Below, piece by piece: positions 5,603-55,282 of a stretch of 64,000 bases of DNA (positions are counted from its first letter, which is position 1; each line of letters begins with the position of its first letter). The translations under genes and the position numbers were made by a program. A model generated the notes under the pieces. It was not told where the DNA came from. It saw only the letters and a list, made by a program, of their open reading frames with translations, and searched no databases. The stretch lies in assembly GCA_024345305.1 (NCBI GenBank), contig BRON01000011.1, positions 248,001 through 312,000 of the forward strand, read 5' to 3'. The DNA comes from Mrakia gelida. Its lineage: Eukaryota > Basidiomycota > Tremellomycetes > Cystofilobasidiales > Mrakiaceae.

Positions 5603-6016
5603 ACTAAACCTATTCTATGGGAGCTTCACCTCGAAGATCTAGCTCTTGCTCTCGGAGATGTGTCGGAGAGGCAGCGAAAATTTGCCTTCTTGAGCTTGAT
5701 CAATCAGCATGACCTCTTGCTCGGTAATCAACGAAGCTCGTCAGGCGAATCAGCCCACGATCTCGCCCTCCTGCCCTTCCTTGCCCTCCAACACCCACCT
5801 CGACGATTTTATGGCCTCTCGTCTCACCTCTGCTATCAAAACATCAACACAAGCTAGGTGAGTCTCTCTCTCTTCTGGCAGGAAAAGCGAGATGAAGTCG
5901 TCATTCGATTTCGATCCGAGCTCATCCCTCCGTTCCCTTCTTTCCCTCTTCCTCCTTCCTTCCCTCCGAACCTCTTCCCTCTCCTCGACTTCAATCTATC
6001 CCTCAGCTTCAGAAAC
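5603..6016. other. Intergenic between CIA1 and the GST gene
   Basis: About 410 bp holding the CIA1 3' end and the GST promoter and leader. Pyrimidine-rich (CT/CCTT tracts) near 5930-5990, as is common upstream of starts in this window. No gene seen. Confidence 0.5.
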
Positions 6017-17077: not shown

Positions 17078-18380
17078 TCACCAACCCGGTTTGAAGCAGA
17101 CGAGCTTGTGTCGTTTCCAGTCGGCCTTCTGGTGCTCTGAGAGAGCGAGAAGTAAGACGAGAGTCGGCTCCTTATTTCAGAGCGTTATAAGAGCTGGAAG
17201 ACGAACCTCTCGAGCAGTAGCGAACGGCGATGCACTTTTGAACGCGACGAAAACGAGGGAGTCAGCGAGTCGCTTCTCAACCTCCGAGAGATGACAGCAC
17301 TCACTCTTGAACAAGCTCGCATCTGCTCGCCTTCCTCCATCTTCGCACACTCCCCAGGAGCCTTCGCTTGACGTGCTAACTCGCAAGACCACCAATGCTC
17401 GCATGAACTGTCCGCCCTCTTCGACCAAACTGACTGTAGCTTCCTCATGTCCGAGGTCGAAACCAAGACCAACAGAATACTGATGGCGGTCTGACACTGG
17501 CGCTCCGAGCCCCAGGTCGCGGACTCCGATATCCTTGGGTCCTCCTTGCAGACGGACGCGACGGCGCGGATGCCAGCCTTGGATCGAGCGGGAAGGCAAG
17601 GCATGGTTACTGAAGGTGGGAGCTGGTGGACGAGGTAGACGAGTGAATTGATGAAGGATGTGATGTTTCGTATGAGGTCCTTGACACCTTCCTCCTCGAC
17701 CTGTTGGTTGCGAGAACAAAGTAGAGAGAGTGGAGGGGGAGGAAGCGAGTCGAGTCGATGAGCCCTCGTTCCATCTCTTGAACGCCCTTCCGATGAGACC
17801 TTACGTACAAGTAGTGCGTCGTTTTCCTCTGTCTGCAGGGCGAGCATATGTGCCTCCCAAAGGTAGACCTCGCAAGCTTCTTGAGGATGATCTCGGATGA
17901 AACGATCGAGGGAGGTCCTCGAGCTCGCGCACATCCACTGGAAGAACCTCAGAAAGTAGAGACCTTGAACTTCTCCTCCGACGAGCATGGTCTGGAGAAA
18001 GGATGGAAGGTACTGGGACCAGGACTCCTCCTGCAAACGCAAAGAAGAGAGAAGAAGCGAGTACCGTGGACGACGTCAGGAAATCCTGATGGCTGCCTTC
18101 CCTCCGCTCATAGAGGCAGACGTGTTCGATACTGACGGCATAGGACTCCTGAGGTTGTCTAGGAGCATCCTTCGCAAAAACTTATCGAGTCGAGAACGCA
18201 GAGGTGTCAGGAACGAGACGACGAGTCGATTCAGAAGGAAAGGGAGAAAGGACGAACGAAACTCCAGAGTCGGTCTAACGCCTCCTTCATGGAGTCCTGA
18301 GCCACTATCGAAGCCGTTCCGTCGGCTCCGGATGAAAGTTGAAGAAGCTGAGCGAGCTCAGTAGGGGAGATAGAGAGCAT
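17078..18380 (-). CDS. MYND zinc-finger family protein, copy A
   Basis: Member of a local family with a C-terminal MYND finger, a zinc-binding protein-interaction module. Start at 18380 (MLSISPTELAQLLQL), aligned with copy B. The central helical region contains YLPSFLQTMLVGG and LDRFIRDHPQEA, matched in copies B and D. At the C-terminus three exons make the finger: MRACSR, then CIAVRYCSR, then EHQKADWKRHKLVCFKPGW and TGA at 17078. Both intron positions and phases inside the finger are the same in copies A, B, C and D, which shows common descent. The usual Cys of the ECQ motif is His here. There is no SET domain, so it is not a SMYD methyltransferase. Head-to-head with F-box-1 at 174 bp. Function unknown. 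Confidence 0.8.
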
Positions 18381-18554
18381 GGGAAGGAAAAGGAGGGAGA
18401 GCCAGGGGAAGGAAGGAAGGCGGTTGACGTTGAGCTCAACTTCGAAACTCCTTCTCTTCTTCCCTCTCACCGCTTCAACCTCCCAGAACACGTGTTTTCA
18501 GCCTCAATATCCAAGTCATACAACCTCGAGGGTGACATCAGTCACATGGCCTCC
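18381..18554. promoter_or_regulatory. Bidirectional promoter of MYND-A and F-box-1 with CACGTG palindrome
   Basis: 174 bp between the two ATGs. A block at about 18424-18496 recurs almost unchanged, inverted, between F-box-2 and MYND-B. It starts with GTTGAGCTCAACTTCGAA, continues through a CT-rich run and CCTCTCACCGCTTC, and ends with AACACGTGTT at 18487-18496. The palindrome ends 58 bp before the F-box ATG. Confidence 0.7.
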
Positions 18555-20244
18555 ATGTCGAATCCGTCGTTCTCGAAGGAAAGGGAGCAGCAGACGAACG
18601 AGAAGGTGAGCTTCGATCTTCCTTCCCTCCTCCCTCCCCTCCCTTCCTTTCCCTCTCTTCCCTCTTTCAGTCTTTTCTTTCGTCCTGTCTTGGTACTCAG
18701 AACTTGAGCTGACTCTCCTTCACCCGTCCCCTGATTCTGTCTCGTTCACCAGGTTGACCTCATCGCTGAGAACCCCCAACTCGAACCAGCTCGCCTTCCT
18801 CCTCCCCCTCCTCCCCTCAACCCTCCCTCCTCTTCGTCTCTCCTCCCTCCCACCGCCCACGATCCGTCTCTCACCAGCATCATCTCTTCAGCATCGTCAG
18901 GAGATCTCGTCGCCTCTCAAATCGCTCAACTCTTCTCCCTCGTCGGTCGTCTCTCATCCGAGAACGAAGCTCTCCAAACTCAGATCGAAGTTCACTCGAC
19001 CCAACTCGACGATCACTCCTCCTCCATCGCTCGTCTCTCAGCCGAGAACGAGGAGATCAAGCGAGGCAAGGAGGAGAGCCACAAGACCATGGAGGAGATG
19101 TCGAAGGCCTTCGGAAGTCACTGGGTCGGGGAAGCCGGAGGAAGGGAGGGAGGGGAGGAGAAGGGACGTTGGCGTTGGTCGGTCGTGAGTCGCTCCCTGG
19201 GTTCTCTTTCCATCCCCCTGTTCGTTTCTGAGCTGGCTCTGACTGCTGTCTTTTTTTTGGTTCGTTTAGGAGAAGCGCAGACAAGCCGTCACCCAAGTTC
19301 CTCGCTCAAAACCACCTCCCTCCCTCGACTCGATCCCAGTCGAACTCTTCGACATCATCGCCTCCCTTCTCCCTCGATCCGACAAGCTCCGGCTCTGCGC
19401 CGTAACGTTCAGCTTCCTTCAAAGGATCGCGCCGAGCTTCTATGGTGGTAACGTGTTTATGGGATACGCACAAGTCTCAAAGTTCGTCGCCAACAGAGTA
19501 CGTTCTGCTCTCCCTCTTCTCTCTTTCGTCCCGACGCGTAGCAATCGACCGACCTTCTCTTCCTCCTCGCCTCTTCAGGTCGTCGACGGAACCGTCTCAA
19601 ACGATCGCATCGGACCTCTCCTCCTTCCTCAGAGGGTCGTCGTCCAAGGCCGCAACTTGAGCGCCGACAACATCACTCTCCTTCAAACTCGCTCGTCGAC
19701 TCTCCCTCCGATCCCACTCGTCAGCCTCGAACTCCAAGATAACGAACTCAACGCCAACACCACCTCCCACTTCCTCCGACACCTCGATCCTTACAGGCTC
19801 GCTATCGGTACAGACGATCAAGATTCCGTCCCTCCCTCCCACATCACCTCCGAAGCCGACATCCGCTCCTTCGCCCTCAACTGGACGCGCCTTCGCAAGG
19901 TCGCCTGCGCGGGGATAGGCTCCGTCCCTCTCCTCGCAGGGAGCGCTTCCTTCGCGTTCTCCGAAACGCTAGCTAGGTGCTCGCCCCTGGACTCGGAGGA
20001 AACGATCAGGCTGGTCTCAAATTTGGATGATGGGTCGGTGAAGGAGCGCGAGCTCGAGTCCGAAGGGAGCGACCTTGCAAACTTCCTATTCACAGCATCT
20101 GGGGAGAACTTAGGGACTAGCGTGGAGATTTCGGACTCTGCGTTGAAGGTGGATCGACTGAGGACGACGTCTGAGGTCCGAGAGAGGAGAGGGAAGCGAG
20201 CGCGAGCGGAGGGAGAGGAAGGAGGAGCGTCGACGGGCATGTAG
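18555..20244 (+). CDS. F-box coiled-coil protein, copy 1
   Basis: Likely substrate adaptor of an SCF ubiquitin ligase (inferred from the F-box). Four exons (18555-18605, 18753-19184, 19270-19497, 19579-20244) join in frame to 458 aa. Exon 1 is the family start MSNPSFSKEREQQTNEK. Exon 2 holds a Pro/Ser-rich linker and a coiled coil (QIAQLFSLVGRLSSENEAL, then ARLSAENEEIK). Exon 3 carries the F-box at about residues 176-215 (SIPVELFDIIASLLPRSDKL, LRLCAVTFSFLQ). Exon 4 is a repeat-like C-terminal region with LRKVACAGIGSVPLLAG, conserved in all copies, and a basic tail. An upstream in-frame ATG at 18546 is possible. Paired head-to-head with MYND-A; convergent with F-box-2. The C-terminal region should be the substrate-binding part. 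Confidence 0.8.
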
Positions 20245-20473
20245 ATACACCTTTCATCGCACCTCCCTACTAGTATATACTTGATCCTAGTGTTCCGGTT
20301 TGTCCTCTGCGGCTGACGGGGGAGAAAGAAGAAGCACCGAGCTCGATGTGAAAGGGAAAGCCGCGACGCGACGCGACCTCGCTTCCCTTCGTTCCTCTTC
20401 GCACGATCGAGCAGCGTTGCATATGTACGAAACCGAGCACCAGCCTCAAGAGTAAAAGTAGTCAGGTAAATAT

Positions 20474-22152
20474 CTACTCCTGTTGAACTCGATCCTCCTT
20501 CCTTCTCAACACCGCTGAAGCTCTAGACGACGTCGCGAGGAGTGGGCGCCGATCTATCAAGGTTTCGAAGACGTCCAGCACGAGCTTCTCTTCCACGGAC
20601 CCGTCCTTCTGTTCAATCTGCTCCCACAGCTCAAGCTCCGGCACTCCTCCATCCTTCGCCCGTTCGAAACACTCCTTGAAGAGCGACCGCTCGTGGGAAG
20701 TCTGGCTCAAGGGATACAGGACGGAGTTCTCTCCAAAGCTGGTGATGGACCGTAGCTTCCGCCACGAGGCAAGGAACCCCATCTCCTCCACGTGCTCCTC
20801 GGTGACCTGGCCCCAGGAAGGGTGTCCTCCGTTTAGAGGGTCCTCAGCCTTCGCGATCACGACAACGTCGACCGGATCGAGCAGGCGAAGGAGGGGAGAC
20901 CAGTGGACGAGATCGTATTCGACGAGATCTCTGGGTCTCAACTCGAGCTGAAGCCGAGGGACTTGGATTGGGATGGGATCCGTTGGAAGTCGCTTGGTGA
21001 GACGGCGGAGAAGAGGTCGAAGTCCTTCGTCGAGGGGGCGAAGAAGGGTGACTTGTTGGGGAAGGAGGAAAGGAGTGATTCGAATGGCGAGAGGATTGGG
21101 AGGAGATATCTGAGACAACGTGAGCAAGACGTTTTATGAGATCAGCCAAGCGTGAAGCGAATCCAAAGATGAGGGAAGGTGCAGGCGAGACGCGACTTAC
21201 TCGAGGTCGAACGAACAGCATCGCCGTCTGAGCGTTCGATAGTTCCACGTTTCGGTAAAGAATGGGAGCGGCAACTCCGAAGAGCCTGAAGGATACGCCG
21301 ATCAGCCGTAGGCGGTCGTTCTTGGTGGCGAGGAGGAAGATCGCGCGGAGGAGTTCGTCGGGGAGGGAGAGGAGGGAGGTTGGAGGTCCGATCTTGACCG
21401 TACGCGATGGGAGTCGATGCCTGTCCTGAACAGTATGTGAAAGTACGTTTCAGCGTAGGCAACTTCTCGGTCCCACGAAGTCAGGCTTCGTACCCTCCGG
21501 GGAAGGAAGAACAAGCAGGAGGCAGGAGACAACTCGATCTGCTCACCTTCGACCAAACCCAGAAACCTTCTCCTTCCTTCAGCTTCTCCCGTACCCAGAG
21601 TCCTCCGGGAAGGACCTTGCTCTCCAGTTGACTTTGTATAGTGGTGTTAGACTCGGCTTCGGAGGAGAGACGTGCGACGGCGGAGGAGAGAGGAGATGGT
21701 CAAAGCTTGGACGTCGGATTGGGTTCTGAGTGCTTCGTTCTCGGACGAGAGACGACCGACGATAGCGAAGAGTTGAGCGATTTGGGAGGCGATGAGATCT
21801 CTTGATGATGATGACGAGGCAACGTTGGCGTGATGTGTATCTTGGGAGGGGGGAGGGAGGAGAGACGAAGAGGAGGAAGGGTCGGAGGAGGAGGGAGGAG
21901 GAGGCGTCGCGAGAGCTGGTTCGAGTTTGGGGTTCTCGGTGACACGGTCGACCTGTTTGACGAGAGAAGTGCATGGAACGAAAGGTCAGGCATTCAACTC
22001 TGACATAGGGGTTGAGAGAGACAAGAAGAAGAAAGAGGCGAGGGTGACGAGGAGAAGAAGAGGAAAGGAAGGAAGGACGGGGAAAGAAGATCGAAGCTCA
22101 CCTTCTCGTGCACCTGCTGCTCCCTTTCCTTCGAGTACGACGGATTCGACAT
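20474..22152 (-). CDS. F-box coiled-coil protein, copy 2
   Basis: Paralogue of copy 1. Start at 22152 (MSNPSYSKEREQQVHEK), then a 149-nt first intron (22101-21953) very like that of copy 4. The linker exon has Pro-rich sequence and IAQLFAIVGRLSSENEAL followed by ARLSSEAES. The F-box is the clearest in the family: LPDELLRAIFLLATKND, LRLIGVSFRLF and APILYRNVEL. The C-terminal region has DLVEYDLVHWSPLLRLLDP and WRKLRSITSFGENSVLYPL, the family counterpart of the GIGSVPLL segment, and ends VQQE before TAG. Presumed SCF adaptor with unknown target. Head-to-head with MYND-B across 180 bp; convergent with copy 1, so modules 1 and 2 are mirror images. Confidence 0.8.
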
Positions 22153-22332
22153 CTGGGTCGAAGATCGAGGTGATGCTAGGCGACGTAGACCTGATGTGAC
22201 GAGGACGAAAACACGTGTTCTGGAAGGTCGAAGCGGTGAGAGGGAAGAAGAGGAAGGAGATTCGAAGTTGAGCTCGACGTCGACCTCCTCCCCGTCCTGA
22301 CCAAGTCCAGCCTTCACTCCTCCGCCTCTACG
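22153..22332. promoter_or_regulatory. Bidirectional promoter of F-box-2 and MYND-B with CACGTG palindrome
   Basis: 180 bp between ATGs. AACACGTGTT lies at 22210-22219, 57 bp from the F-box-2 ATG, the same place as in module 1 but on the opposite strand. The flanking block to about 22285 is the inverted counterpart of 18424-18496, including AAGTTGAGCTCGACGTCGA. Confidence 0.7.
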
Positions 22333-23576
22333 ATGGATACCTCACCCACTCAGCTCGGGACACTACTCGGTCTCCATTTCAGAAGCTGCGATACGACTCT
22401 ACCCCCAAGAATCCTCACTCAGGAGGTCTCGATGGAACAGTTGACGTCCGAGCTCACCTGCTGGAGCAAGATCGTTAGCCTTCGTCCCCCCTCCTGCCTT
22501 CTTGAGTGCCATACTGAATCTCGCTTCACGTTCTTGCAGCACTCAACATTCACGAGGGTCTCGGAGGAGGAGCTTCACAAGTTCTTCGTGCGTTTCTTTT
22601 CGCATTCGCCCCTTCTTCGTCTTGCGGATTGACCCCCTCCCTCTTAAACAGGCCGAGTTCAACGCATTGTATCTTCCATCCTTCGTCAAGACGGTTATCG
22701 CACAGGCTACACATCAGTTTCCTGGCTCCCAGCTATGGTGGCTCATCCTCTACAGCACGCTGCACTTCGTAGCGATGGAACCGTCCTTCTCTCGATTCGT
22801 CCGAGAGCACGACGAAGACGCTCGTCGTCTCTGCTCGTTCTACTCTCTCACTCTCGGCAACATCTCTCACGATCTGGATAACAGCATAGTTGGTTCTATT
22901 CTGCATCTTTGTGGGTAAGCTTTCGCTGACACGCTGGCTTTTTTTCTTCTTCAGCAGACCTCGTACGAAGAGGCCGTCGTGTCGATCCATCCTCTCGTCC
23001 TCAACCTCGACGATGTCGTCAACGCTCTATCGGACCAATTCCCTCCCCTGTCGAAGTCAAGCATCCTCGACGACGCATCCAGAGCTGCTCTCAACAAGAC
23101 CCTCCCTCACCTCCTTCGACAACGAATCCAACCGAACCCCGAGCTTTGGACTCGAGCCTTTCGTCTTAGCGGTATCGTGGAGGCCATGCTCGGAATCTCA
23201 AGTGAATCAGAAGCCAATCGGCTGAGCCTCGAGCTTCGAGGATACTGGTGGAGATGCGAGACGAACAGAGTGGACGGCGCGTCGTGCTCGACTGTCCTCG
23301 CCGAGGGAGAGGAGATGATGGCGTGTGGTCGAGTGAGTTCCTTTCCACTGCCTGAAAACTGGTCATCTCTTTCGAATCTGACCACTGATCACTCGACTCG
23401 TCCCTCAGTGCCGCGCTGTTCGATACTGCTCGAAAGGTTCGTCACGTCGAGATCTTCTCCCTGTTCCGCTCTCGTCCTTCCTTCAGCTGAAGTCTCTTCG
23501 CCGTCTTCTCCTTCCAGAACATCAGCGAGCCAACTGGAAGCAGCACAAGCTCACCTGTTTCGAGCCGAAGTGGTGA
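22333..23576 (+). CDS. MYND zinc-finger family protein, copy B
   Basis: The best preserved MYND copy, about 300 aa. Start ATG at 22333 (MDTSPTQLGTLLGLHF). The core contains FNALYLPSFVKTVIAQ and FSRFVREHDEDARRL, aligning with copies A and D, then a helical stretch and LELRGYWWRCE. The finger is spread over three exons: MMACGR, CRAVRYCSK, and EHQRANWKQHKLTCFEPKW followed by TGA at 23576. Ligands visible are C-x2-C, C of YC, H of EHQ, H of KQHK and the final C; the first Cys pair of a full MYND is missing or lies in the WRCE/ASC segment. The stop overlaps a GTGAGG donor-like sequence, so an alternative 3' end is possible. Shares its promoter with F-box-2. Role unknown. Confidence 0.8.
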
Positions 23577-24641
23577 GGGTGGAGACCGAGAAGAGACGAC
23601 GCGTTGGAGGTGTCTCGTTTGCGCTGGGTTTTTTTCGTCGAGGTTCCGGAATCGATGGCCATTCTCTCTCGTCCACCTCGGTGTCGCAGGAAGTGCTCGT
23701 CTTTCTTGGAGTAGTAAAGCTGTACCTTCAACATCAGTCGTCGAAGCGTCGGACGAGAACGGAGCGAGAAGGGAGGGAAGGCGTGCTCTCCCTTTTTTCG
23801 ACGGTTCTCCTCCAACCCCATCTCCCTCTTCCCCTCTTATCCCCTACAGGATTCTCGGTACTCTGCTTCAACAGCAGAACGTCTCATCCTCGTCCTCGCC
23901 TTCCTCATCTAGCGTCACTTCGAGCTGCTGGACGGAAATGGCTCTGTTGCAAAGAACAGTCGCGGAGGGAGGGGAGGGAGGAGAGATCGAGCTCACCCAC
24001 TTTACTTTTTGGTCCAATCCTGGTGAGTCCTCGGTATCTCTGTCAAAACTGCACCTCGGGGGCAGAACATACAGGTTTGGAATTCTGATCTAGCTGGTCG
24101 TCAAGGATGGGGGCGAGGAGGGCGAGGCCCAAGTCGAGAAGAGAAGAAGAGGAAGGAAGGGATGGGATGTTGAGCTCGATTCGGCCTTCCTCCGTTCGTT
24201 CTCGTTCTCGCTGACCCTTTCTTCCGCCTTTCTTTGCTTCTTTTACACGTTCAGAGCCATGAGCGTCACAGGCTTCGAACCAAACCTTTCATCGGCGACA
24301 GAAAAGCTTCAAATTCTACCGAGGAACGAGTCCTCCAGCCGGGGTTCCCGCTCTCGTCCTCTCCAATTCTCGAGCTCAAGTCAAAGACCTTCGTCCTCCT
24401 TCTCTGTCATAGGACAGATCTTTCTTTGGAGATCACTCCACTCCACCAAGTCAGTCGTCGAAGGCGCCATCCATCCTCGAAGATGGGACATGGTTGAAAA
24501 CCCAGGAAATTTGGATGGGCTGACTTCCCTCTCTTCGCTCCTAACAGCCATCCTCCTCGACCAACTACTTCAATCTGCTTCCGACACCCTCTCTCTCTCT
24601 CACTCCGAAACTCTCACCTAGGAAACCTCTTCCCCTGAACA
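23577..24641. other. Intergenic with possible coding remnants
   Basis: About 1.06 kb between MYND-B and the transporter. A plausible exon at about 23850-24022 reads LGTLLQQQNV, WTEMALLQRTVAEGGE and ELTHFTFWSNP, ending at a GTGAGT donor. A second open block from an ATG at 24259 reads MSVTGFEPNLSSATEKL. I could not join them into one credible protein, and neither resembles a neighbour. They may be 3' exons of MYND-B, a small unknown gene, or remnants. Confidence 0.3.
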
Positions 24642-27494
24642 ATGACCGACGTCAGCTCTCGTTCACCCTCGCCGGCGAAACTGCAGCATCAAATTGAGGA
24701 GAAGGAGGTCGTTCGCGTTCCGTTCTTTCGTTCAGTACAGTTCGCTGTGAGTACCTTGTCGCCCCCTTCTCTTGCGTAGCTTTTTTCTCAGTGATTCCAC
24801 GACGTTGGGGGAGACGAGGAGTCGGTAGAAGTTGATTGGAGAGCTCAAAGCTCGCGGATTCGTTCAAAACTCGAGCTCACACCTTTCCCTTCCTCGCCCT
24901 CGTTCCCCTTCCTCGCAGGTACTGATAGCGGGTCTGGTGACATTCACCGCCCCAGGCATGTATGACGCGATCGGTGAGTCCTTCTCTTTACGGGCACGAA
25001 GCCTTCTTCTGCGTCTTCTCAAAGCTCGACTTCCCTCCCACCCTCCCCTCCCCCTGCGATTCGAGGCGCCTCGTGAGACTCCCGCTGACTTCTTTCTCTC
25101 TCATCTTTGCTCACGTCCTCTAGGAAACCTCGGAGCTGGAGGAGCTGCGGAGCCTTGGGCTGTATCTGCCGCGAACGCCATCGTGTGAGTATCGAAGAAA
25201 CGTTGTCCGCGAACTCGGCGTCTCGTCCGTCGAAACCGAAGCTCACATTTCGCTCTCCCTTCTCCCTGCTCGCTTCAGTTACGGTCTCATGACTCTCTTC
25301 TGTCTCCTATCTGGTGGTCTCATCAACACCATCGGTGTAAAATGGGCTCTCGTACTCGTGAGTTCCTTCGACCCAACTCTTTCTTCGATCCTCCCTCGGC
25401 TCTTTCTTCCGGAGCTCGAGCTGACCGAGAATCGCTTTGTAAATCGAACTCTTAGGGTACCATCGGATACCCTCTCTACGGTGCTGGACTCTACACCAAC
25501 TCCTACACGAGTGAGTCCTCGCTCGCATCCTTTTCCTTCGCTCGTCATCGTCGTTTCGTTGTCGCGAAGAGAGTTTGAGAAACTGGAGGAACGATTTCTA
25601 CAGCTGACTGAGCGCTTCTGTCCGTCCTCTTTTCTTCCTTTCAGCCAACACCTGGTTCCTTATCTTCGGATCCGTCTTCATCGGAATCAGTGCTGGTTTC
25701 TTCTGGGTGAGTCGAGTCGAAATTCGGACGCGTCGAGTCGGACGCGTTGGGGCTCTTCCCTCCTCCCCTCCCCTACTTTTCCGTCTTCCAGGTCGAGCCA
25801 GATGCGACTTTATCTTGGCTCAGTCCGGTACGAAGCGTCGACCACGTTTTCTGACCCCACATTTTCCGCTCTTCTCGTTCTTTTTTTCCCACAGACGGCC
25901 GAAGCTTCGATCTACATCGGATACCCTGAACCTGGACAGAAGGGTCGATACCTCGCTCAATGGAGTTTCTGGAAGAACATCGCTCCCGCCGTCGGTGGTG
26001 CCGGTACGTCTTTGCTGCGATAGAAACTAGGAGGAAGAAGCTCGACCTAACCGCGTTCGCTTTTCGATTTTCACAGTCTCTCTCGGAGTCAACTCGAAGA
26101 CCGAGACTGGAGGTGCCATCTCGGCTGCTACTTACATCGTCTTCATCGTCATCATGTGCTTGGTGAGTCGCTATCCATCCACGTCGCTGAGCTCTTCGTC
26201 GAAACTGACCTCGTCGTCGTCCCTTCGTCTTCTTCTTTCCAGGGTCTTCCCATCTCCATGTTCCTCCCCTCTCCTGCCAAGGTCCTGCGATCCGACGGAT
26301 CCAGCGTCCCTAATCGAGTCGGAAAGGGAGCTCTCAAGGAGGTCCTCGAGGTCTTCAAGCTCTACAAAGACAAGAGGGTTCGTCTTCTTTCGCGAACGAT
26401 TCTCTTCCACCACGCGACGGTCGAAACTGACGAGCTTCCTCCCCCTCTTCTTACTTCCTCAGGTTCTCCTCCTCCTCCCCTCCTTCATCTGCTCGTACTT
26501 CTACCTCTCCTGGCAGAGTATCTACCTCTCCACCTACTTCAACGTTCGAACTCGGTCGCTCTCTTCCCTCGTCTCTCCCTTCGCCGGAATCATCTCGTCA
26601 TACGCCATGGGATTCTACCTCGATCAGCGACACATCACCGTTCGAACTCGAGCCACCGTCACCCTCGCCATCCTCTTCTTCGCCGAGATGGGTCTCTGGA
26701 TCTGGGCCACCGTTATCGAGAAGGAGTTTGCCGTTTCCCAGCCCATCATCGATTGGTGAGTCTTTCGTCGCGTCTCGATTCTTTCTTTTTTTCGAGCATC
26801 CTCGGGGCTGACTCTCTCCCCCCTCCTCTCTCTTCGCAAACAGGACGAGCCCTGAGTTCGGAAAGGCTTGGGTCTTGGTTTTCTTCTGGACGTTCGTCGG
26901 CCAGGCTATCCAGAACTACGTTCGTCCCTCGTCTCGCCCCGCCGTCCAAATCGAACGAACCTCGAGCTGACCTTCTTCGCTCTTTCTCACAGTTCTACTG
27001 GGTCATCTCGCATTTTGCCAAGGATATTCACGTCATCTCGCGATACGCTGGACTCTTCCGTTCGATGGAGGCTCTCGGACAGGTTCGTTTTTCGCAACTT
27101 CTCTCCTCGCCAGTCGTGGTCGCGTCTTTCGTCGTGACTGACTCTTGCTCTTCTTCTCCTCCACCACAGACTATCGCCTGGGCCGTCGCCTCCAAATCCT
27201 ACATCTCTTCTTGGGCTCTGTGAGTTCCATCTCCTTTGCTCCTCATCATCGTCGTCTGATCGAACTCGTCCTGACTCGACGCGTCTCTTCCCTTCCCCTC
27301 TTCTTCTCCTCAGCATCGGAATGAACTTCGGAGGTCTCTTCGTTGCTCTCATTCTCGCCTACCCCGTCGTCCGAAACCTCACCGAGATCGACGCTGCCGT
27401 AGTTGGAGAGGACGGTTCGCTGGCGTTGGGACACGAGAAGGAAGTTCCTACGAGCGGTTCAGCGACGCCCGAGGATCGCGAGTTGAGGGTTTGA
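24642..27494 (+). CDS. UNC93-like major facilitator transporter
   Basis: Predicted 11-12 span membrane transporter of the fungal UNC93-like MFS group. The ATG at 24642 begins a cytosolic tail (MTDVSSRSPSPAKLQHQIEE), then RSVQFAVLIAGLVTFTAPGM, the usual first span. Further spans across many exons include YGLMTLFCLLSGGLINTIG, TWFLIFGSVFIGISAGFFW, YLSWQSIYLSTYF and WVLVFFWTFVGQAIQNYFYW. Between them is EASIYIGYPEPGQKGRYLA, a loop typical of the family. The C-terminus is soluble and acidic (GEDGSLALGHEKE). Substrate is unknown. At least eleven short introns have the local splice consensus. It sits inside the F-box/MYND cluster with no evident functional link. Confidence 0.82.
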
Positions 27495-27977
27495 GCAGTT
27501 GGATCATGTATTTGTCTGAACGTATAGAATCAGAGCTAGACTTTTGGTGTATTGTTTATATTCTAATGTACTCGGTATTCTTTCGATCATCTGCCGTTCG
27601 AGAAGTTGAAACTCGATGCGTCTTCTGCCTAACGACTTGCTCGTTCTTTCTCAGGCTTCAGCCTTCCTTTCCTTTCAAGCACGGGCGAGCACGAAGTATA
27701 TTAATTTTTGAGCCTATCTATATCTCTCCTCAGAGGGCGTACGAACGAACAAAGTAAAGTAAGGGCAAGCGAGAGTCGTCGCTCCCTCTTGAATCGACGG
27801 GTTGAGAGAAGAGCGAGCTTGCGACGAAGGACCCCAAGTCATCCGGCCTCGAGATTTGACGAGACGTAAGTCGCCTCTGCTGGATCGAATAGGCGGAGGT
27901 CAGTCGAAGCACGGTCGAAGAGTAGCGCGAAGGGAAAGGTCGGGAGAAAAAGGGGAGACTCACGCGACGCGACGAGA
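27495..27977. other. Convergent 3' region of UNC93-like gene and MYND relic
   Basis: About 480 bp. AT-rich stretch 27510-27730, probably terminators and poly(A) sites of the transporter. On the minus strand a GTGAGT donor near 27961 and an acceptor CCAG near 27895 suggest a 3'-UTR intron behind the MYND relic. Confidence 0.4.
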
Positions 27978-28317
27978 TCACCAAGTCGGCGGGAAGCAAG
28001 TCTTTTTGTGCATTTTCCAGTCGAGTTTTTGATGTTCTGGATGGCGACCGACGTAAAGGAATAGGAAAGAACACGTCAGCGAGGCGAAGTCGAAGAGAGG
28101 ACGGCGACGCGACGAACCTTTCGAGCAGTATCGAACCGCGCGACACTGCGAAAGAGGAAGGGACAAGGCGTCAGGACTGGAAGTAAGAGGAGCAGAGGAT
28201 TGGGGTGAGTCTACTCACCCGACTGCAAGCCAACATGCCCGCCAGCTTCGACTGCTCCGACTCGAGTCGATTGCTAGGACGGACGAGGACCTCACCGCGG
28301 AGATCAACGAGGGAATC
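27978..28317 (-). pseudogene. 5'-truncated MYND family relic, copy C
   Basis: Only the C-terminal finger exons of the local MYND family remain. The first block (28317 to about 28219) encodes LESEQSKLAGMLACSR; it is followed by CRAVRYCSK and EHQKLDWKMHKKTCFPPTW with TGA at 27978. Splice sites and phases are exactly those of copies A and B, with intact CTGAC branch sites. No in-frame ATG lies upstream except the Met of MLACSR, and an in-frame stop occurs shortly 5' of the first block. The conserved N-terminal start and the YLPS core are missing; that space is taken by the divergent gene at 28327. It could still be expressed as a 34-residue finger peptide, but a relic is the simpler reading. Confidence 0.6.
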
Positions 28318-28326
28318 CTGTGAGTC

Positions 28327-29300
28327 ATGGACATGGAGATGGAGGGAGTCTCATCGGTCGCAGAGTACCTAGGCTGGGTCGTTGCTGGATTGAAGGAAGG
28401 GAAGTGGCAGAGGGACGAGGAAGGAAGTTTGAACGGATGGGCGTTCGTCGTTTCGAAGGTGAGCTCGCGTCTCTCGTCTCTCCTTCTTTTCGCTTCCGCT
28501 CTTCGTCTGTCTTGTGGGATGCTGATGAACATCCTTTTTCATTCATCCACGGCTTCCTCCTCAGATCATCCCCATCCTCTCCGCTGCCGTCGAAGCTCTC
28601 AAGTCCAATTCATCTTCGTTCGACGTCCTCCTCTTCGCGACTCAGCTCCAGCTCCTCGATCCCGAATCTGGTTTCTTCCTCCTCCGAACCTTCGAGCGAG
28701 TTGATAAGACTAACGAGGAGAAGATCGAGTTCATCGAGGACGCTATCGAGGATCTCGAAGTCACCGTTCGAGTGGTGAGTCTTTCGTTTCTCCTCGTCTC
28801 CTCGCTCGACGTCTCGTTCGACTCGAGCTCGTCGCTTCGCCTTCCTCCACTGGAGCTCGATGTGACTCCCCTTTCCCTCTCCTTCTACACCTCTCCTGCC
28901 ATCCTCGCAGTTCTATTCAAAGGAATCCTCCTCCGCTCACCTCCTCAAAGACTCCTCCTTCATCGGCTCTTCCTCCTCCGCCTTCTCCTCCGACGTCGTC
29001 CCTTCTTCTTTGGAAGCCTACGCGCTCGCGCCTCAACTGATGGATTCCTACTCGAGCTTCGGCTCCAGTGCTCCCGACTCGGCTGTCTTTGAGCAGCTCG
29101 ACGAGGTTGAGCTTGGAGTGGAGCTTCCGGTCGTGAGAAGGAGGGACGAGCGGATGAACTGGTGGAGTGAGGAGGAGCTCGTCGTCGCTGAGGCTCGCGC
29201 GACCGAGGAGGAAGAGGAGATGTCTGAGTCCGAGGAGGAGTTGGAGACACCTGGGCTCCGAAGGGAGGTCGTTGAGGCGTGGTGGGTGGTGAGGAAGTGA
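28327..29300 (+). CDS. Hypothetical acidic protein inside the F-box/MYND cluster
   Basis: Not recognised. Three exons. Exon 1 from the ATG at 28327 reads MDMEMEGVSSVAEYLGWVVA and ends WAFVVSK at a GTGAGC donor. Exon 2 (from about 28565) reads IIPILSAAVEALKSNSS, LLFATQLQLLDPESGFFLL and KTNEEKIEFIEDAIEDLEV. Exon 3 opens FYSKESSSAHLLKDSSF, is Ser-rich, and ends in an acidic tail (ATEEEEEMSESEEELE) and WWVVRK before TGA. Both joins are phase 0. The middle is amphipathic helical; there is no membrane span. The start lies 10 bp from the MYND relic on the other strand, so the gene occupies the place where an F-box partner or the MYND 5' part would be. Function unknown. Confidence 0.65.
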
Positions 29301-30025
29301 GGGAGGAGTTGCGGTGTTCGTTTCGGTTTCTCGTGTCTCGTTCGTCTGTTTCTCGTTATCCCTCGATTTGTTTTTCGTATTGGTAGCCAGACTTGCCTTC
29401 TTTGTTATAGTTTTCCGTTCTCTTGACCTCGTCTCGCCGTTCTCGCTGGTCTTTCTCCCGTCTCTCTCTCATGTCCTCGTCGCGTCGTCTCTCTTTTTCC
29501 GTCTCTTCCATCCTTCACGCCTTTACGCTTCTCCTCGATATGTTGCTACTTCCCTACCCTCGATATTTTCTCTTGTTTTGCCTCTCTCTCTCCTCCATGC
29601 ATCGTCAATTGTAGATCTAGCCCACCCTTCTGTTCTCTCTTCTCTCGCCTCGATTCTCGTGTCTCATTCTAGTCTCGTCTCGTTTCCCTTTTCCTAGTCT
29701 TGTCTTCCTTTTCAAACCTTTCTCGATGACGCCTCCTTCTTGATCGCAGTCTGGAGTGAAAGGCTGACTGCTCATTGATGCCAACTGGAGTCCTTCCGAG
29801 CTTTCCCATCCTTCTCTCGCGACGCGTCCAAACGGATCGTTCGAAAGGACATCAATCCCCGTCACCTCGGCTCCCTCCTCCGCTCGCCCACTGATCGCTC
29901 AGTCTTCCCACTTCGAAGAGATCGTCCTGTTCTGTGAGCGAAGACACGGAAGCATGTCAGTTGAGCGAACGAAGCTCAAAGAGGAACAAAGGGAAGCTCC
30001 CCTCGACGCGTCGCCCTCGTCCGGA
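29301..30025. other. Intergenic, T/C-rich
   Basis: About 725 bp, pyrimidine-rich on the plus strand (TCTCGTCTC-type runs 29310-29740), between the 3' ends of the acidic gene and MYND-D. An acceptor-like CTCACAG for a minus-strand 3'-UTR intron lies near 29935. No coding signal. Confidence 0.4.
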
Positions 30026-31458
30026 TCACCACTTCGTCTCGAAGCAGAGCTTCTTGTCTCCCTTCCAATCCTTCTTCTGGTGTTCTGAGGAGTCAAAGAT
30101 CGAAAGAAGGAGAAGTCAGCGCGCTCGTCGTCGGTAAGAGACGGAGGGGGAAAGGGAAAGGACGCGACGCGACGAACGTTTCGAGCAGTATCGAACAGTG
30201 AGGCACTGAAGAACGAGGAACAAGAACGGTCAGCGCGATTCAAGCGCATAGAGCAGCTGGTGAGCAATACTCACTCGTGAACAAGCCATCACTTCGTCTA
30301 CCTCGACGCACTCCAAGCTCTAGCCGTGGTTCCCGACTCGATCCCAGGTCGCCTCGCATCTCCACCACGCACCAGGAGACCTCTTCGCCGCCATCTCCCT
30401 TCACCCCTGGTAGTACCGCTCCGGAGAACCTAGAAGGATGCTGATAAAGTCTTGCAATGTCTCGCGGGTCTCGGCGGTGAAGAAGGTCTCATCACGACCG
30501 ACGGGAAGGGCGAGACGAAGTTTGACGAGACCTTCGAGCGTCTGACGACGGGGCTGAGGAAGATCAGCGAGGGAAGGGAGCTGTTGTGGGATCTGTTCGA
30601 AGAGGTTCCTCCACAAGTGAAAGAGGTTTCGAATGGTGGGCAGTCTCGCCTCGAGAATGTCTGGCTATATAAACGGGAAGAGCGAAGGGCCAGAAGTGAG
30701 CTCAAAGATCATCACTTTCTTCGACCTGCCCATCGAACGAAGACAAAGAGGTACTCACCCTTAGGAGACCAAGACCACCAAGAGACTCTAGCGCAAACGC
30801 ATAGAGCTTCAAAGCCTCTGCGTCCTTCTCTCGCACGAAGCGGGCCAGGTATTCCGAGGTTTTGGGACGGAAGATAGCGGCCAGAAAAGCGACGTGCAGC
30901 CCCCACCAGGTTCCAGAGTCGCCCTCCACTGACATGGGCATGATGAGAAGCGTTCGGATGAGGCTGGGAAGGTAAGCGGCGCAGAGTTGGCACTGGTCGA
31001 ATGGAAAGGGAAGAGAGAGAAGTGGGAGAGAAGGTCAGCTTCCTTCGCCGTCGCTCAACAGCTAGCTTCTGCTTTGAAGCGGGCGGACGGAGCGAAGACT
31101 GAGGACTGAGACCTACAGCGAACCTGGTGAACGCATCAGGTTCCACGATACAGCACTGGTGGTACTAGGAGTGGGAGAGCGACTGAAGTCAGCGGCGGCG
31201 AGAGAGGAGGGAGGGAAGACGAAGGAGCGACCTCGAGCTCACCATCTCTTCAAGTCGATCCACCTCCTGGGTAGTAGGTTTCTTGAGAACTGGAAGTCCC
31301 GATGAGGGAGAGAGACTCATGAGATCGGCTAGCTCGGTTAGAGAAGGAAGGACGATCGGAAAGAGGGAAGAGGGGAGGGGAGGGGAAAGAAGGGAGGAGG
31401 TCGACGTCGAGCCCAACTTGAACTCGTCGAGCTCGCTTCCTCTTTCTTCCCCTCTCAC
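30026..31458 (-). CDS. MYND zinc-finger family protein, copy D (degenerate)
   Basis: Fourth family member, drifting. The family N-terminus is present as LPSLTELADLMSL, but the Met that opens copies A and B is not there; translation must start upstream at 31458 (MRGEERGSELDEF) inside the ancestral promoter, or not at all. The core has CQLCAAYLPSLIRTLL, WWGLHVAFLAAIF and YLARFVREKDAEALKL, aligned with A and B. The finger reads VMACSR, CLTVRYCSK and HQKKDWKGDKKLCFETKW, ending at 30026. The zinc-ligand His of the family K-x-H-K is Asp (KGDK), and Glu before HQ is Gln. Intron positions are conserved. Head-to-head with F-box-3 at 74 bp. It may be losing function. Confidence 0.65.
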
Positions 31459-31532
31459 GGATTCATCCTCTTAGCAACGAAACGTCTTCTTCGTCTCTTT
31501 CTTCGCCAGCGGGACTCCATACATCTCCTACG
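31459..31532. promoter_or_regulatory. Short divergent region of MYND-D and F-box-3
   Basis: Only 74 bp if MYND-D starts at 31458. The GAGGTCGACGTCGAG element of the module promoters lies just outside, at about 31396-31412 within the annotated MYND-D frame. No CACGTG is present. This suggests the true ancestral promoter spans about 31390-31532. Confidence 0.45.
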
Positions 31533-33393
31533 ATGTCCAGACGAAAAACGAGATCAGCATCTGCTAGAGAAGCTGAGCAACAGGTGAGTGATCCGAGCTC
31601 ATCAGGCAACCTTCCTTCCCTCCTTTCCTTCCCTTCTCTTGCCTCGTTCGTACGACTTTTCTCGATACATCACTCACCTGGCTGAGTCCTTTGCTCGATC
31701 ATTCTTCCTCCTCTTTTCTGGCAGCCTCAACTCGCTCCTGTTGAAGCTCAGAACTCCTCCCACAACGTCGCCATCTCTTCCCCTTCAGCTGCTCCTCCTG
31801 CCTCTCCCGTTCTTCCCCTTCTCGTACACGTCTCCTTCGGAAACGACGAAGCTGACTTTCCAAAACCTTTCTCCTTCTCCCAGGATCCTGCTCTTCTCAC
31901 AAACGTCGAATCTCAAACGAACGTCGTTCCTCCTCCTCCTCCTCCTCCTCCTGCCGGCGCTTCCCTCAACCAGCCCTCCTCGTCCTCTGCAGCCAACCTC
32001 GCTGCTTCCCTTCTTCCCTCTCACACCACCAGCGCCTCCTCCGCTTCATCCTCAGGAGATCTCATCGCCGCTCAGTTCGCTCATCTCTTCGCCATCGTCG
32101 GTCGTCTCTGGTCGGAAAACGAAGCTCTCAAAGCTCAAGCCGAAGATCACTCGTCCGAACTCGAAGCTCACTGCTCGTCCATCGCTCGTCTCTCGGCCGA
32201 GAACGAAGAGCTAAGGATGAATGACGAGAAGCAGACGAGGATCCTGGACGAGATCGTCAAGACGTTGTGGCCCACTGAGATCGAGGGAGAAGAGGAAGGG
32301 AGCAGCGTCGGGACGTCATCTGCGGTCAGTTCCCTCGCGCGGCTTTGTTCCCTTCCCTTCTTCATCTTCGTTCGTTCAAAGCTGAATCCCTGCCTCTCAA
32401 AATGTGTCTACTTATCCAGTCATCGCCTCTCATCGACGCTCATCAACAATCTCTCTCGCCATTCGAAACCCTCCCTCTCAAAGTCTTCCGAAGACTCTCG
32501 CTCTTCATCACCCGAGGAGAACTCTTCGCCCTCTATGGACTTTCCTTCTCCACCCTCCGAGCCGTAGCTCGTGTCTTCTACTCAGCCTTCTACCTGGATT
32601 TCCTTTGCGTTCCTTCAGATCGCATCGCTCGATTCGTCTTGCCCAAGGTGAGCATTCGACATCGACGCGTTTCAATCGTCCTTTCTTCTTCACGCTGACT
32701 CTGGTTTGGTCTCGTCACCTCCCACTTCATTATCCAGGTAACCTTGCCTGAAGAGAGGGTTTCTCCCCTCCTCCTCTCTCCTGCCATCCTCCTCGATGCT
32801 CAAGGGTTCGAGCCGTCCCATCTCGACTTCCTCGAGGACCTCCAACCCACCCATCTCATCGACGTCCTCGGTCTCTTCTTCCTCTCCTCACCGAAAACCT
32901 CTTTCCCTCTCGCTCTCACCCAATGGGCTCCCATGCTTCACCTCTTCAACCCTCGTGCCCTCCATCTCTCCGAGGATGTCAACCCTCCGAAGGAGCCCTT
33001 CTCCTACTTCTTCGTCGATCCGGACCATCTCCCCTTCCTCGAGCTCTGGACGAGCCTCGTCATGGTCTTCGCGATGGGTCCTGGATCGGTCCCCATCCTC
33101 CAAGGAACCGAGGACACCTCCGCGTTTGGATCGTCTCGCTTGCCGGAGCGGGGGACGAGGAAGCCGTCGTTTCGTTCGGGTCGGACTTAGAGGAGCAGCA
33201 GCAGCAGGACGTCGAATCGTCAGCCGAAGAAGAACAACAACCCGACGTCGTCGACCTCATGGAGCGTTCGTTCGACCTCGGTCCCGCACACACGACCTAC
33301 CGAATTTGGATGCCTCGGAAGATGGGGTTGAATAAGGAGGGCTTTGCACGATGGAAGAAGGTGTTCGAGCGAGAGGGAGAGGAGGACGCGTAG
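31533..33393 (+). CDS. F-box coiled-coil protein, copy 3, with apparent frameshift
   Basis: Paralogue of copies 1, 2 and 4. The ATG at 31533 opens a short basic exon ending AREAEQQ. Exon 2 is Pro/Ser-rich and carries the family coiled coil (HLFAIVGRLWSENEAL, ARLSAENEELR). The F-box follows: SPFETLPLKVFRRLSLFI and LFALYGLSFSTLRAVAR. The C-terminal exon reads LLDAQGFEPSHLDFLEDL and WTSLVMVFAMGPGSVPILQG, aligned to the family. Right after that, near 33,095-33,125, the frame is broken. The same frame stops at TAG 33190 after about 25 unrelated residues. Another frame continues with VWIVSLAGAGDEEAVVSF, an acidic Gln-rich stretch and YRIWMPRKMGLNKEGFARW to TAG at 33393. No intron fits the break. 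It is a pseudogene, a recent frameshift or a sequence error. Confidence 0.65.
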
Positions 33394-53256: not shown

Positions 53257-53644
53257 GTCGATGACATTAATTTCGACCCTTGTGACCAGTACCTTCGTCG
53301 AGGAATCCAGGTCGGAAGACGGGCAAGACGGAGAGGGAAAGGGAGACGCGTCAAGGTCGAAGTTCAACCTTGCCTCTCGTTGCCCCTTTCTCTCTTCACT
53401 CCTCTCGTCTCGCTACAGCTCGGCGGTGAACAGGAAGATATAAGCAGTCTGGCCGTCGAAGGAGAGGTAGGAGGAAGGTCGAAGAAGAGGAGGGACAAAG
53501 GTCAAGCGCGCGTCCACCGTCGCTCAAGCGAGAGCTTCGACGCCGACTACTTCAACCCTTTGCCCCTCCCGCGTTTCCTTCCGATCTCTGCTATCAGCGG
53601 CGATGCATGTTCATGACGATACCAACTAGTCAAACTAACGAAAG
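53257..53644. other. Intergenic between tRNA and F-box-4
   Basis: About 390 bp; includes upstream sequence of the tRNA (minus strand) and the 3' end of F-box-4. No coding signal. Confidence 0.45.
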
Positions 53645-55282
53645 CTACCGAACCACGTCGTCGCCATCTTCTCCGCCATCTTCGATCTCCTCCGTGATCA
53701 CGAACGACGTTCCCTCCTCCCCTGCAACGTACTGTTCCGACCACTCGTACGGAGTCACTCCCACCTCGACAGTCCGCTCATTATCCTCCGACCCTCCCCA
53801 GTGGACCCGACGGGTCGGCTCGACACACGTCTTCACCTTCCTCTGCCCCCTTGCTCTCCAGTGACGAGAAAACACCGTCTCCTTCTTCTCGTCCCCTTCG
53901 ATAAGCACTATAGACCCTTCCCCGAAGTAGCGGACCTTCTTGAGATGAGTCCATGTTGGAAGGAACGAGGTCGACGCGAGCGGGATGAAGGAAGAGGAGG
54001 GAAGGCGAGCACCCGACGGAGAAAAGAGGGCAACGAAATCGAGTTCGACAGGGTTGAAGGAGAATCGAGCAACGGAGGAGAGGAGAGTTGTGTCCACGAA
54101 GAGGTCGGCCAGCTGAGGAAGGTACAGGCGAAGCCGGTCGACGTCGAGCGGCGCGCCTCTGACCTGACGGATCCGTTGAAGCGCTTGAGCCTGGTCGCAC
54201 TCCAGTCGTCGCTGTCCAGGCCTATGTTGAGGATATGAGGAACGAAGAGGGAGGTAATTCGGGGACTTCTAGGGGTGTCGGCCGAGGCCTGTCGAGGGAA
54301 GAGACGTGGTGAGCAACGAGAGACACGCGGACGAGCAGAAGCAGGACAGCGCGACTCACCCTGCCTTTGAAGTACAGAACCGTCTCCTTGGGATCTATGA
54401 GGTGCGGTTCCTTGTACAGGAATGGCGAGAGAACCTCCGCTACTCGAAACGAGACGCAGAAGAAGGGAAAGAGATTCCCCTCGTCCGGTTCCACGAGCTC
54501 GAAGATCGTCTTGATAAGCTCGACGGGGAGGGAGAGGAGGGACGTTGGAGGTCCAGCTGCGATCGGAGGAGGGTTGGGTCTGTACTTCTCCTCTTAGATA
54601 CAAGACTCGGTCAGCTCGAGAACGATGGCGAAGGAAAAAAAGTGAAGCTGAGACTAACCAACGAGAACAGCCAACGACCTTCGTTCCCTCTCGCCCTCTC
54701 GAGCTCATCCTTCTTTGTCTCCCAAATCCAATGACCGTCCGGGACAGCAGCTCTGGATAGCTCGGCGATGACTCGATCCTGATCCTCGACTGTCCTCCTG
54801 AGGGCTTGGTTCTCCGACTTGAGGGACGCGAGCTCGGCGTTGACTCGAGCGAAGGAGTTGAGGTGAGCTTCGTTCTCTGACGAGAGACGACCGACGAGGG
54901 TGAAGAGCTGAGCGATTCGAGCGGCGACGGGATCTGCTAACAATGATGATGATGCTGAGGCGACGTTGACTCGAGTTGGATCGTGGAAGGTGGGAGGGAC
55001 GGTGGACGAAGAGGAGGAAGGGTTGAAGGGAGGAGGGGGAGCGAGAGCAGGTTCGAGTTGAGGGTTTCCGATGACAAGGTTGACCTGTTTGACAAGAAAA
55101 GAGCATGGAACGAGAGGTCAGGGAGTCAGCTCTGACATAGAGGGCGAGAGGGACAAGAAGACGAAAGAGGCGAGGGTGAAAAGGAGAAGAAGAGGAGAGG
55201 AAGGAAGGAGAGAAGGGAAATCGAAGCTCACCTTCTCGTCCGTCTGCTGGTCCCCGACCTGCGACGATGACGGATCTGACAT
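53645..55282 (-). CDS. F-box coiled-coil protein, copy 4
   Basis: Solo member of the F-box family, 20 kb from the main cluster. Start at 55282 (MSDPSSSQVGDQQTDEK), with a first intron of 147 nt (55231-55085) strikingly similar to the 149-nt first intron of copy 2. The next exon has NPQLEPALAPPPPF, IAQLFTLVGRLSSENEAH and ELASLKSENQALRRTVED, a coiled coil. The F-box is clear: LPVELIKTIFELVEPDE, LFPFFCVSFRVAEVL and PFLYKEPHL. The C-terminal region shows LPTWTHLKKVRYFGEGSIVL, aligned to GIGSVPLL of copy 1, and ends in an acidic tail at 53645. There is no MYND partner; it is divergent from NSE2. Presumed SCF adaptor. Confidence 0.8.

What the first reader, a model, noticed from the sequence alone, without database searches (positions are those of the whole stretch)
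17078..33393. Head-to-head F-box / MYND-finger gene modules, repeated three times
Seen: MYND-A/F-box-1, F-box-2/MYND-B and MYND-D/F-box-3 are each divergent pairs of one gene from each of two unrelated families, plus a MYND relic (C) and a solo F-box copy (4). Family A has conserved finger-exon introns; family B has a conserved start, coiled coil (IAQLF..VGRLSSENEAL), F-box and a G-x-x-SV-P-L-L segment. Known: F-box proteins are SCF adaptors and MYND fingers bind peptides. Inference: the pair is one unit (adaptor plus partner), spread and kept together by selection or shared control. I know of no described fungal system with this layout.
Basis: partly seen in the sequence, partly recalled or inferred. 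Interest (0 to 1): 0.87.

Follow-up and report, generated by a model that had tools for sequence, protein, structure and literature searches.

The report
Reshuffled head-to-head F-box/MYND gene pairs
In a cold-loving yeast, probably Mrakia gelida, pairs of neighbouring genes that point away from each other (one for an F-box protein, one for a MYND zinc-finger protein) occur about twenty times on one chromosome, and the copies have traded partners through a shared middle segment, so they look like a fast-changing, mix-and-match gene repertoire rather than one fixed two-gene unit.

Summary
In detail: three divergent F-box/MYND pairs, a MYND relic and a solo F-box gene lie as described. MYND is clear by Pfam; the F-box is weak in single copies but clear by profile. 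The layout recurs: 21 pairs with 1.4-1.8 kb spacing genome-wide, 19 on this 1.56-Mb contig, where 20 of 54 F-box loci have a divergent MYND neighbour within 2.5 kb (random placement: mean 1.7, maximum 7). The layout is kept, partner identity is not: across 15 sequenced pairs MYND and F-box distances are uncorrelated (Mantel r about 0), trees conflict, and one pair is a mosaic of the window's pairs 1 and 2, switching inside a core (promoter plus F-box exons 1-2). Most listed MYND loci (133 of 157) have no family F-box found within 2.5 kb, and three of the window's eight copies are broken or relics. The contig also carries HD mating-type genes. Best reading: a fast-evolving, recombining repertoire of SCF-type receptors with co-expressed MYND partners. 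Function is inferred; neutral duplication is the main rival, and a toxin-antidote reading is not excluded.

The parts
17078..18380 (-). MYND-A: upstream exons plus C-terminal MYND finger split by two introns round a 28-base micro-exon; 5' exons uncertain
   Evidence: Pfam zf-MYND E 1.2e-12
18381..18554 (.). intergenic region of pair 1, read as bidirectional promoter, with palindromic CACGTG at 18489-18494
18415..19045 (.). core of pair 1 (promoter, F-box exon 1, intron 1, coiled-coil part of exon 2), 74% identical to the core of pair 2
   Evidence: W1 1516-2146 against W2 1709-2342
18555..20244 (+). F-box-1: 4 exons, 458 aa, open; coiled coil, F-box-like domain, variable C-terminal domain
20474..22152 (-). 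F-box-2: same 4 exons, but exon 2 is frame-shifted
21659..22292 (.). core of pair 2, inverted with respect to the core of pair 1
22153..22332 (.). intergenic region of pair 2 with CACGTG at 22212-22217
22333..23576 (+). MYND-B, finger complete
27981..28145 (-). MYND-C relic: finger micro-exon and last exon only
30026..31320 (-). MYND-D: same exons, two in-frame stop codons before the finger
31321..31532 (.). intergenic region of pair 3; no CACGTG in the scanned upstream stretch
31533..33190 (+). F-box-3: 4 exons, alternative N-terminus (MSRRKTRS...), frame ends at 33190
53635..55282 (-). F-box-4, solo: no MYND trace found in about 3.1 kb upstream

Best explanation
This is a lineage-specific, fast-evolving gene repertoire built from divergent F-box/MYND pairs. 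The two start codons of a pair share one short intergenic region, read as a bidirectional promoter. In most sequenced pairs this promoter with F-box exons 1-2 (coiled coil) forms a common core of about 600 bp. The MYND body on one side and the F-box plus C-terminal domain on the other are variable arms. Ectopic recombination or gene conversion between paralogous cores and neighbouring exons exchanges the arms, so the divergent layout persists while partner combinations change (shown by sequence). Inferred: the F-box proteins are SCF substrate receptors whose variable C-terminal domain picks targets, and the co-expressed MYND protein is a peptide-binding accessory. Together they serve a recognition task that rewards diversity (nonself, parasite or selfish-element proteins), with birth, decay and reshuffling of copies. 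I hold the structural and evolutionary part at about 0.85 and the functional part at about 0.35.
For: 21 pairs with spacing 1.41-1.76 kb: 19 on C11, 1 on C2, 1 on C7; 20 of 54 against 1.7 expected. Mantel MYND against F-box r = -0.006, p 0.51, 15 pairs. Correlation falls with distance along the module: Me3-Me2 .89, Me2-promoter segment .56, promoter segment-FBe2 .36, FBe2-FBe3 .27 (p .07), MYND-FBe3/4 between -.15 and .10. MYND clade A is supported at 96/96 yet rejected in the F-box exon 3-4 tree (AU p 1.4e-46); F-box clade L015+W2 is supported at 96/91 yet rejected in the MYND tree (AU p 7e-4). MYND-clade labels need 7 changes on the F-box tree, shuffled mean 7.4; 2 on the MYND tree. Mosaic L015: 514 sites with pair 1 and 108 with pair 2 on the left, 109 and 501 on the right; the switch lies in the core. 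CACGTG in 12 of 16 pairs, 1 of 12 solos. dN/dS 0.38-0.90 over the larger segments. F-box profile. Homologues found only in M. frigida (candidates capped in 51 and 60); the best exon matches of two of them in this genome are 66% and 76%.
Against: No expression or binding data. Identities of 25-40% between many copies approach saturation, which alone weakens the Mantel test; the L015 mosaic and the clade tests depend less on it, though some branches are long. Five of 16 pairs share the core with the others mostly in short pieces. dN/dS below 1 and the broken copies also fit relaxed constraint; F-box exon 3 alone reached 1.16 in one of 8 comparisons. The layout may persist only because copies inherit it. 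Structure models were too poor to support an SCF receptor fold (pLDDT 48 and 34).
Confidence: 0.55

Rival explanations
1. Plain duplication: one ancestral divergent pair was copied many times within a chromosome; layout and promoter are inherited, arms are homogenised or swapped by ectopic gene conversion, and the two products have no joint function.
For: 19 of 21 pairs on one contig; three window pairs within 16 kb; broken copies; 11 of 13 solo F-box copies, each searched over 2.8-3.5 kb, show no MYND trace upstream, L019c has a finger relic and L021b had only 0.5 kb, so F-box genes persist alone; 133 of 157 listed MYND loci have no family F-box found within 2.5 kb.
Against: Despite partner exchange the divergent layout is kept in 20 of 23 close F-box/MYND neighbourhoods on C11; CACGTG goes with the paired state, though shared ancestry could explain that; close copies keep dN/dS below 1 over the larger segments. 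None of these excludes it.
Confidence: 0.3
2. Toxin-antidote or drive elements: the MYND protein harms spores or zygotes lacking the pair, the F-box protein degrades it, as KSS F-box antidotes do to their toxins in Caenorhabditis tropicalis.
For: F-box family concentrated on one contig (54 of 65 loci found), as ksl F-box genes are (78.4% on Chr II; passages of PMC12680543 read); tight linkage; rapid divergence; the contig carries HD mating-type genes.
Against: Cognate partners should be inherited together, but they are exchanged. 133 of 157 listed MYND loci have no family F-box found within 2.5 kb (the F-box list is a lower bound). Toxicity was not tested.
Confidence: 0.1
3. Two independent family expansions that lie together by chance.
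For: F-box-like genes are numerous genome-wide (135 exon hits over the cut-off) and MYND genes too (166 pattern hits); F-box-like hits outside the family show no clear preference (3 of 6 close ones divergent).
Against: Fixed spacing and orientation, a common intergenic core in 10 of 16 sequenced pairs, 20 of 54 against 1.7 expected.
Confidence: 0.02

Closest known systems
KSS/ksl F-box antidotes of Caenorhabditis (PMC12680543, passages read)
   Same: Large, fast-evolving F-box family mostly on one chromosome; some members act with a closely linked partner gene; the F-box is barely recognisable by sequence.
   Different: There the partners are toxins derived from a tRNA synthetase subunit and antidotes are cognate-specific; here the partner is a MYND protein, partners are exchanged, the layout is divergent with a shared intergenic region, and no toxicity is known.
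Basidiomycete HD1/HD2 mating-type gene pairs (PMC8545103, passages read)
   Same: Divergent gene pair with a short intergenic region; one such pair lies on the same contig.
   Different: HD pairs are mating-locus transcription factors that heterodimerise; here there are about 21 paralogous pairs of other domains.
MYND-finger gene enrichment in Microbotryomycetes (Table 3 of PMC4469406, passage read)
   Same: Lineage-specific enrichment of zf-MYND genes in basidiomycetes (7, 11 and 26 in three species).
   Different: Larger here (166 pattern hits) and partly paired with a distinct F-box family; no pairing is mentioned in the passages read.
Plant S-locus F-box/S-RNase systems (recalled)
   Same: F-box genes tightly linked to a functional partner gene and under diversification.
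   Different: One locus with an RNase partner; the partner here is a MYND protein.

Membership tests
F-box proteins (SCF receptors) | F-box domain of about 40 residues (LPxEL ... xVSFxxL) | tested here: met
   19 of 25 exon-3 sequences hit F-box-like at E<=0.1, best 9e-6; of 3 window copies given singly none passed the cut-off; profile finds F-box chains in PDB, best E 0.0011
F-box proteins (SCF receptors) | Skp1 binding and a substrate-binding C-terminal domain | not testable with these tools
   structure model of pLDDT 48 was not used
MYND zinc-finger proteins | MYND zinc-ligand pattern at the C-terminus | tested here: met
   Pfam PF01753 over the cut-off in 4 of 4 copies given
Fixed co-inherited gene pair (adaptor plus partner) | the two genes share one history | tested here: not met
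Bidirectional-promoter gene pair | short conserved region between divergent start codons | tested here: met
   174, 180 and 212 bp in the window; core alignable in all combinations of 10 of 16 pairs, mostly short pieces in the rest; CACGTG in 12 of 16
Bidirectional-promoter gene pair | co-expression of both genes | not testable with these tools
   no expression data held
F-box toxin-antidote element (KSS type) | cognate partner kept with its own F-box | tested here: not met
   partner exchange
F-box toxin-antidote element (KSS type) | partner toxic in non-carriers | not testable with these tools
   needs crosses

The most novel reading that the evidence does not exclude
The common core is a recombination hinge that generates combinatorial F-box x MYND diversity on the HD mating-type chromosome. 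In the window, two inverted cores flank two convergent F-box genes, so an inversion between them would swap partners in one step. The resulting repertoire acts in nonself recognition or spore drive at mating, a fungal counterpart of linked F-box recognition systems in plants and worms.
Probability: 0.12. Interest if true: 0.9.

Novelty: new variant of a known kind. Interest (0 to 1): 0.6.

Why it matters
Expanding, fast-changing F-box families are known in plants and worms and have given rise to self-incompatibility and toxin-antidote systems. A fungal repertoire in which an F-box gene can share a promoter region with an exchangeable partner gene, on the chromosome that carries HD mating-type genes, would give a genetically tractable case for asking what drives such families. 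It also shows that a conserved gene layout need not mean conserved partners.

Tried and rejected
Fixed adaptor-plus-partner unit: rejected. Chance neighbours: rejected. Microbotryomycetes origin: rejected; the homologues found are Mrakia frigida, and PMC12749792 (passages read) gives the M. gelida assembly GCA_024345305.1 as 25 contigs and 34.9 Mb, as here (34,857,517 bases, 25 contigs). M. frigida itself: rejected; its F-box proteins P0002 and P0004 match this genome at 66% and 76% at best, exon by exon. General F-box/MYND coupling: of 135 F-box-like hits over the cut-off (of 150 listed; typed into) 7 lie within 4 kb of a listed MYND, 3 divergent. Clustering of pairs round the HD genes: 19 pairs, mean distance 256 kb against 496 kb for uniform placement (p 0.0009), but p 0.056 when the pattern is shifted as a whole; all 54 F-box loci, 383 kb, p 0.043 by shift; post hoc, so only suggestive. 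Off-contig MYND loci as pairs with other E3 adaptors: of 3 such loci fetched, L029 faces a BTB gene (Pfam BTB E 8e-8), L028 and L030 face other genes; of 18 BTB loci only that one lies within 6 kb of a listed MYND. Structure models: pLDDT 47.8 and 33.7, so no fold search was run. The dynamic-programming gene models can step round breaks with small introns and are not used as proof of intactness. Papers: searches were judged by title and start of abstract; none listed there describes F-box/MYND pairs (listings are capped, e.g. 20 of 1,042). PMC12749792 has 0 occurrences of F-box or MYND in its main text.
Full report
Observation. The three divergent pairs, the MYND relic and the solo F-box gene are present. 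MYND fingers are certain (Pfam E 7e-13 to 8e-9, 4 of 4 copies given). The F-box is cryptic: of three window copies given singly only copy 2 matched Pfam, below the cut-off. Of 25 exon-3 sequences (of 33 found) 19 match F-box-like at E<=0.1. Their profile finds 14 PDB sequences at E<=10, 10 of them F-box proteins, the first at E 0.0011. Pair 1 reads clean apart from MYND-A's unsure 5' end. F-box-2 has a frame shift in exon 2, MYND-D two in-frame stops, and MYND-C is a relic: three of eight copies. The intergenic gaps are 174, 180 and 212 bp by the start codons I read.

Genome census. The window is C11:248001-312000 of a 34,857,517-base, 25-contig genome. The MYND micro-exon with its donor site occurs 166 times (control 0); a narrower pattern with up to 3 mismatches gives 129 (control 1). 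Protein and pattern searches give 65 F-box-family loci, 54 of them on C11; the tool scores only the best candidates, so this is a lower bound. Listings are capped at 100 places, so I hold 157 MYND loci and those beyond C14 are under-listed; the list with at most 2 mismatches is complete (84: C11 25, C16 16, C5 9, C20 7, C7 5, others 22), but its pattern came from C11 copies. Of 65 F-box loci, 27 have a listed MYND within 6 kb: 23 divergent, 2 convergent, 2 tandem; 21 of the 23 have a spacing of 1.41-1.76 kb. The other two are a relic facing its F-box at 219 bp and one at 5 kb. On C11, 20 of 54 F-box loci (the relic included) have a divergent MYND within 2.5 kb, against a mean of 1.7 and a maximum of 7 in 2000 random placements; the other configurations together give 3. 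Seen from the MYND side, 24 of 157 listed loci have a family F-box within 2.5 kb, 22 of them divergent; off C11 2 of 117. Copies are related, so this measures the persistence of a layout, not independent gains.

Anatomy. I read 16 pairs (13 fetched, 3 in the window) and 13 solo F-box copies; five lone exon-3 hits (L010, two in L018, L022, L023) and a lone exon 2 (L026) were dropped before the counts and trees. DNA comparison shows a common segment: the promoter, F-box exon 1, intron 1 and the coiled-coil part of exon 2. All 45 combinations of 10 pairs (L011, L015, L016, L017, L023, L024, L026, L032, W1, W2) align through it over 571-2415 bp at 66-84%. L021 shares about 250-1050 bp with these. 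L009, L010, L031, L033 and W3 share mostly short pieces of it with them, although L009, L010 and W3 align with each other over 2.2-2.4 kb. Pairs 1 and 2 share it at 74% over 650 bp while their MYND arms do not align. CACGTG lies in the promoter in 12 of 16 pairs and 1 of 12 solos scanned; in 9 of the 12 pairs my scan found a start codon 65-68 bases downstream, in 3 (L015, L032, L033) it found none; the pairs without CACGTG are L009, L010, L011 and W3. No MYND trace lies in the 2.8-3.5 kb searched at and upstream of the start of 11 of 13 solo F-box copies; L019c has a finger relic, and L021b had only 0.5 kb.

Partners are exchanged. For 15 pairs (L017 left out, as its F-box is truncated) MYND and F-box distances are uncorrelated (r -0.006, p 0.51). 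Correlation decays along the module.89 within MYND.56 from MYND exon 2 to the promoter segment (which holds some coding sequence on both sides).36 promoter segment to F-box exon 2.27 exon 2 to exon 3 (p .07), between -.15 and .10 from MYND to exons 3-4; exons 3 and 4 correlate at .52. MYND clade A (W1, L015, L024, L026) is supported at 96/96 and is rejected by F-box exons 3-4 (AU p 1.4e-46). The F-box clade L015+W2 is supported at 96/91 and is rejected by MYND (AU p 7e-4) (some branches are long). MYND-clade labels need 7 changes on the F-box tree, as many as shuffled labels (mean 7.4, 52% at or below); on the MYND tree itself they need 2. L015 is a direct mosaic: of sites that tell pair 1 from pair 2, the left part matches 514 to 108 for pair 1, the core 67 to 47, the right part 109 to 501 for pair 2, and the switch lies inside the core. 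In the window the two cores of pairs 1 and 2 are inverted and flank two convergent F-box genes, so an inversion between them would swap partners; this is inference.

Selection and relatives. dN/dS of close copies is 0.43-0.90 for MYND exons 2-3 (11 comparisons), 0.38-0.68 for F-box exons 3-4 (10) and 0.41-0.69 for F-box exon 2 (6); F-box exon 3 alone gives 0.23-1.16 (8 comparisons of 62-66 codons). This is fast, but mostly below 1. The only homologues found in a 5.8-billion-protein collection are from Mrakia frigida (5 F-box, 1 MYND; candidates were capped). Two of them, searched against this genome, match at 66% (P0002) and 76% (P0004) at best, so this is not M. frigida. PMC12749792 (passages) gives M. 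gelida GCA_024345305.1 as 25 contigs and 34.9 Mb, equal to this genome; I take the organism as M. gelida, not proven.

Setting. C11 carries a divergent HD1/HD2 mating-type pair at about 376-379 kb: a Homeobox_KN hit and, on the other strand, an exon ending in VW followed by one starting FQNRRNRKK (assignment as HD2 by eye). A second Homeobox_KN hit lies on C14 and was not followed. C16 has two STE3 receptor loci. In the complete list of 84, MYND loci are densest on C11 and C16 (16.0 and 12.9 per Mb; C20 8.3, C5 4.3, C7 2.5, the rest 0.8). Pairs lie nearer the HD genes than uniform placement, but not clearly so when clustering is kept (p 0.056; all F-box loci p 0.043).

How it most likely works. 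Shown: layout, shared core in most sequenced pairs, exchange of arms, broken copies. Inferred: F-box proteins act as SCF receptors with a variable target domain, the MYND protein is a co-expressed peptide-binding partner, and the repertoire is used for a recognition task. A neutral history of duplication with gene conversion is the strongest rival. A toxin-antidote reading is weakened by partner exchange and by the many MYND genes without a family F-box, but the chromosome bias resembles that of the ksl F-box genes in Caenorhabditis (PMC12680543, passages).

Noticed in passing
L034 (C11:371000-378999), about 5300-7900: Divergent homeodomain HD1/HD2 mating-type gene pair on the window's contig (Homeobox_KN E 2e-4 in the genome search; FQNRRN exon on the other strand).
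   Followed up: partly
C16:465013-466017 and C16:503471-504508: Two STE3-type pheromone receptor loci 38 kb apart on one contig, one with a stop inside the matched frame; two STE3 genes are also described in homothallic Phaffia rhodozyma (PMC8545103, passage).
   Followed up: no
C14:442915-443007 (+): A second Homeobox_KN match, not examined.
   Followed up: no
L029:2226-3035 (-), C5:663 kb: A BTB/POZ gene lies head-to-head with a MYND gene at 1.65 kb, the same spacing as the F-box pairs; single case.
   Followed up: partly
C16:868942(-)/871536(+) and C16:585738(-)/588300(+): Two pairs of MYND loci face each other head-to-head, about 2.6 kb between finger exons (one coordinate approximate).
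   Followed up: no
whole genome: F-box-like domains are very numerous: 135 exon hits over the Pfam cut-off among 150 scored of 428 candidates, with tandem runs such as C7:983.9-986.5 kb.
   Followed up: no
window 24.6-27.5 kb: Between pairs 2 and 3 lies a multi-exon gene that by eye looks like a membrane transporter; no family search was run.
   Followed up: no
L015:6802-6858 (+): A stray MYND finger tail lies just after the recombinant pair's F-box gene.
   Followed up: no
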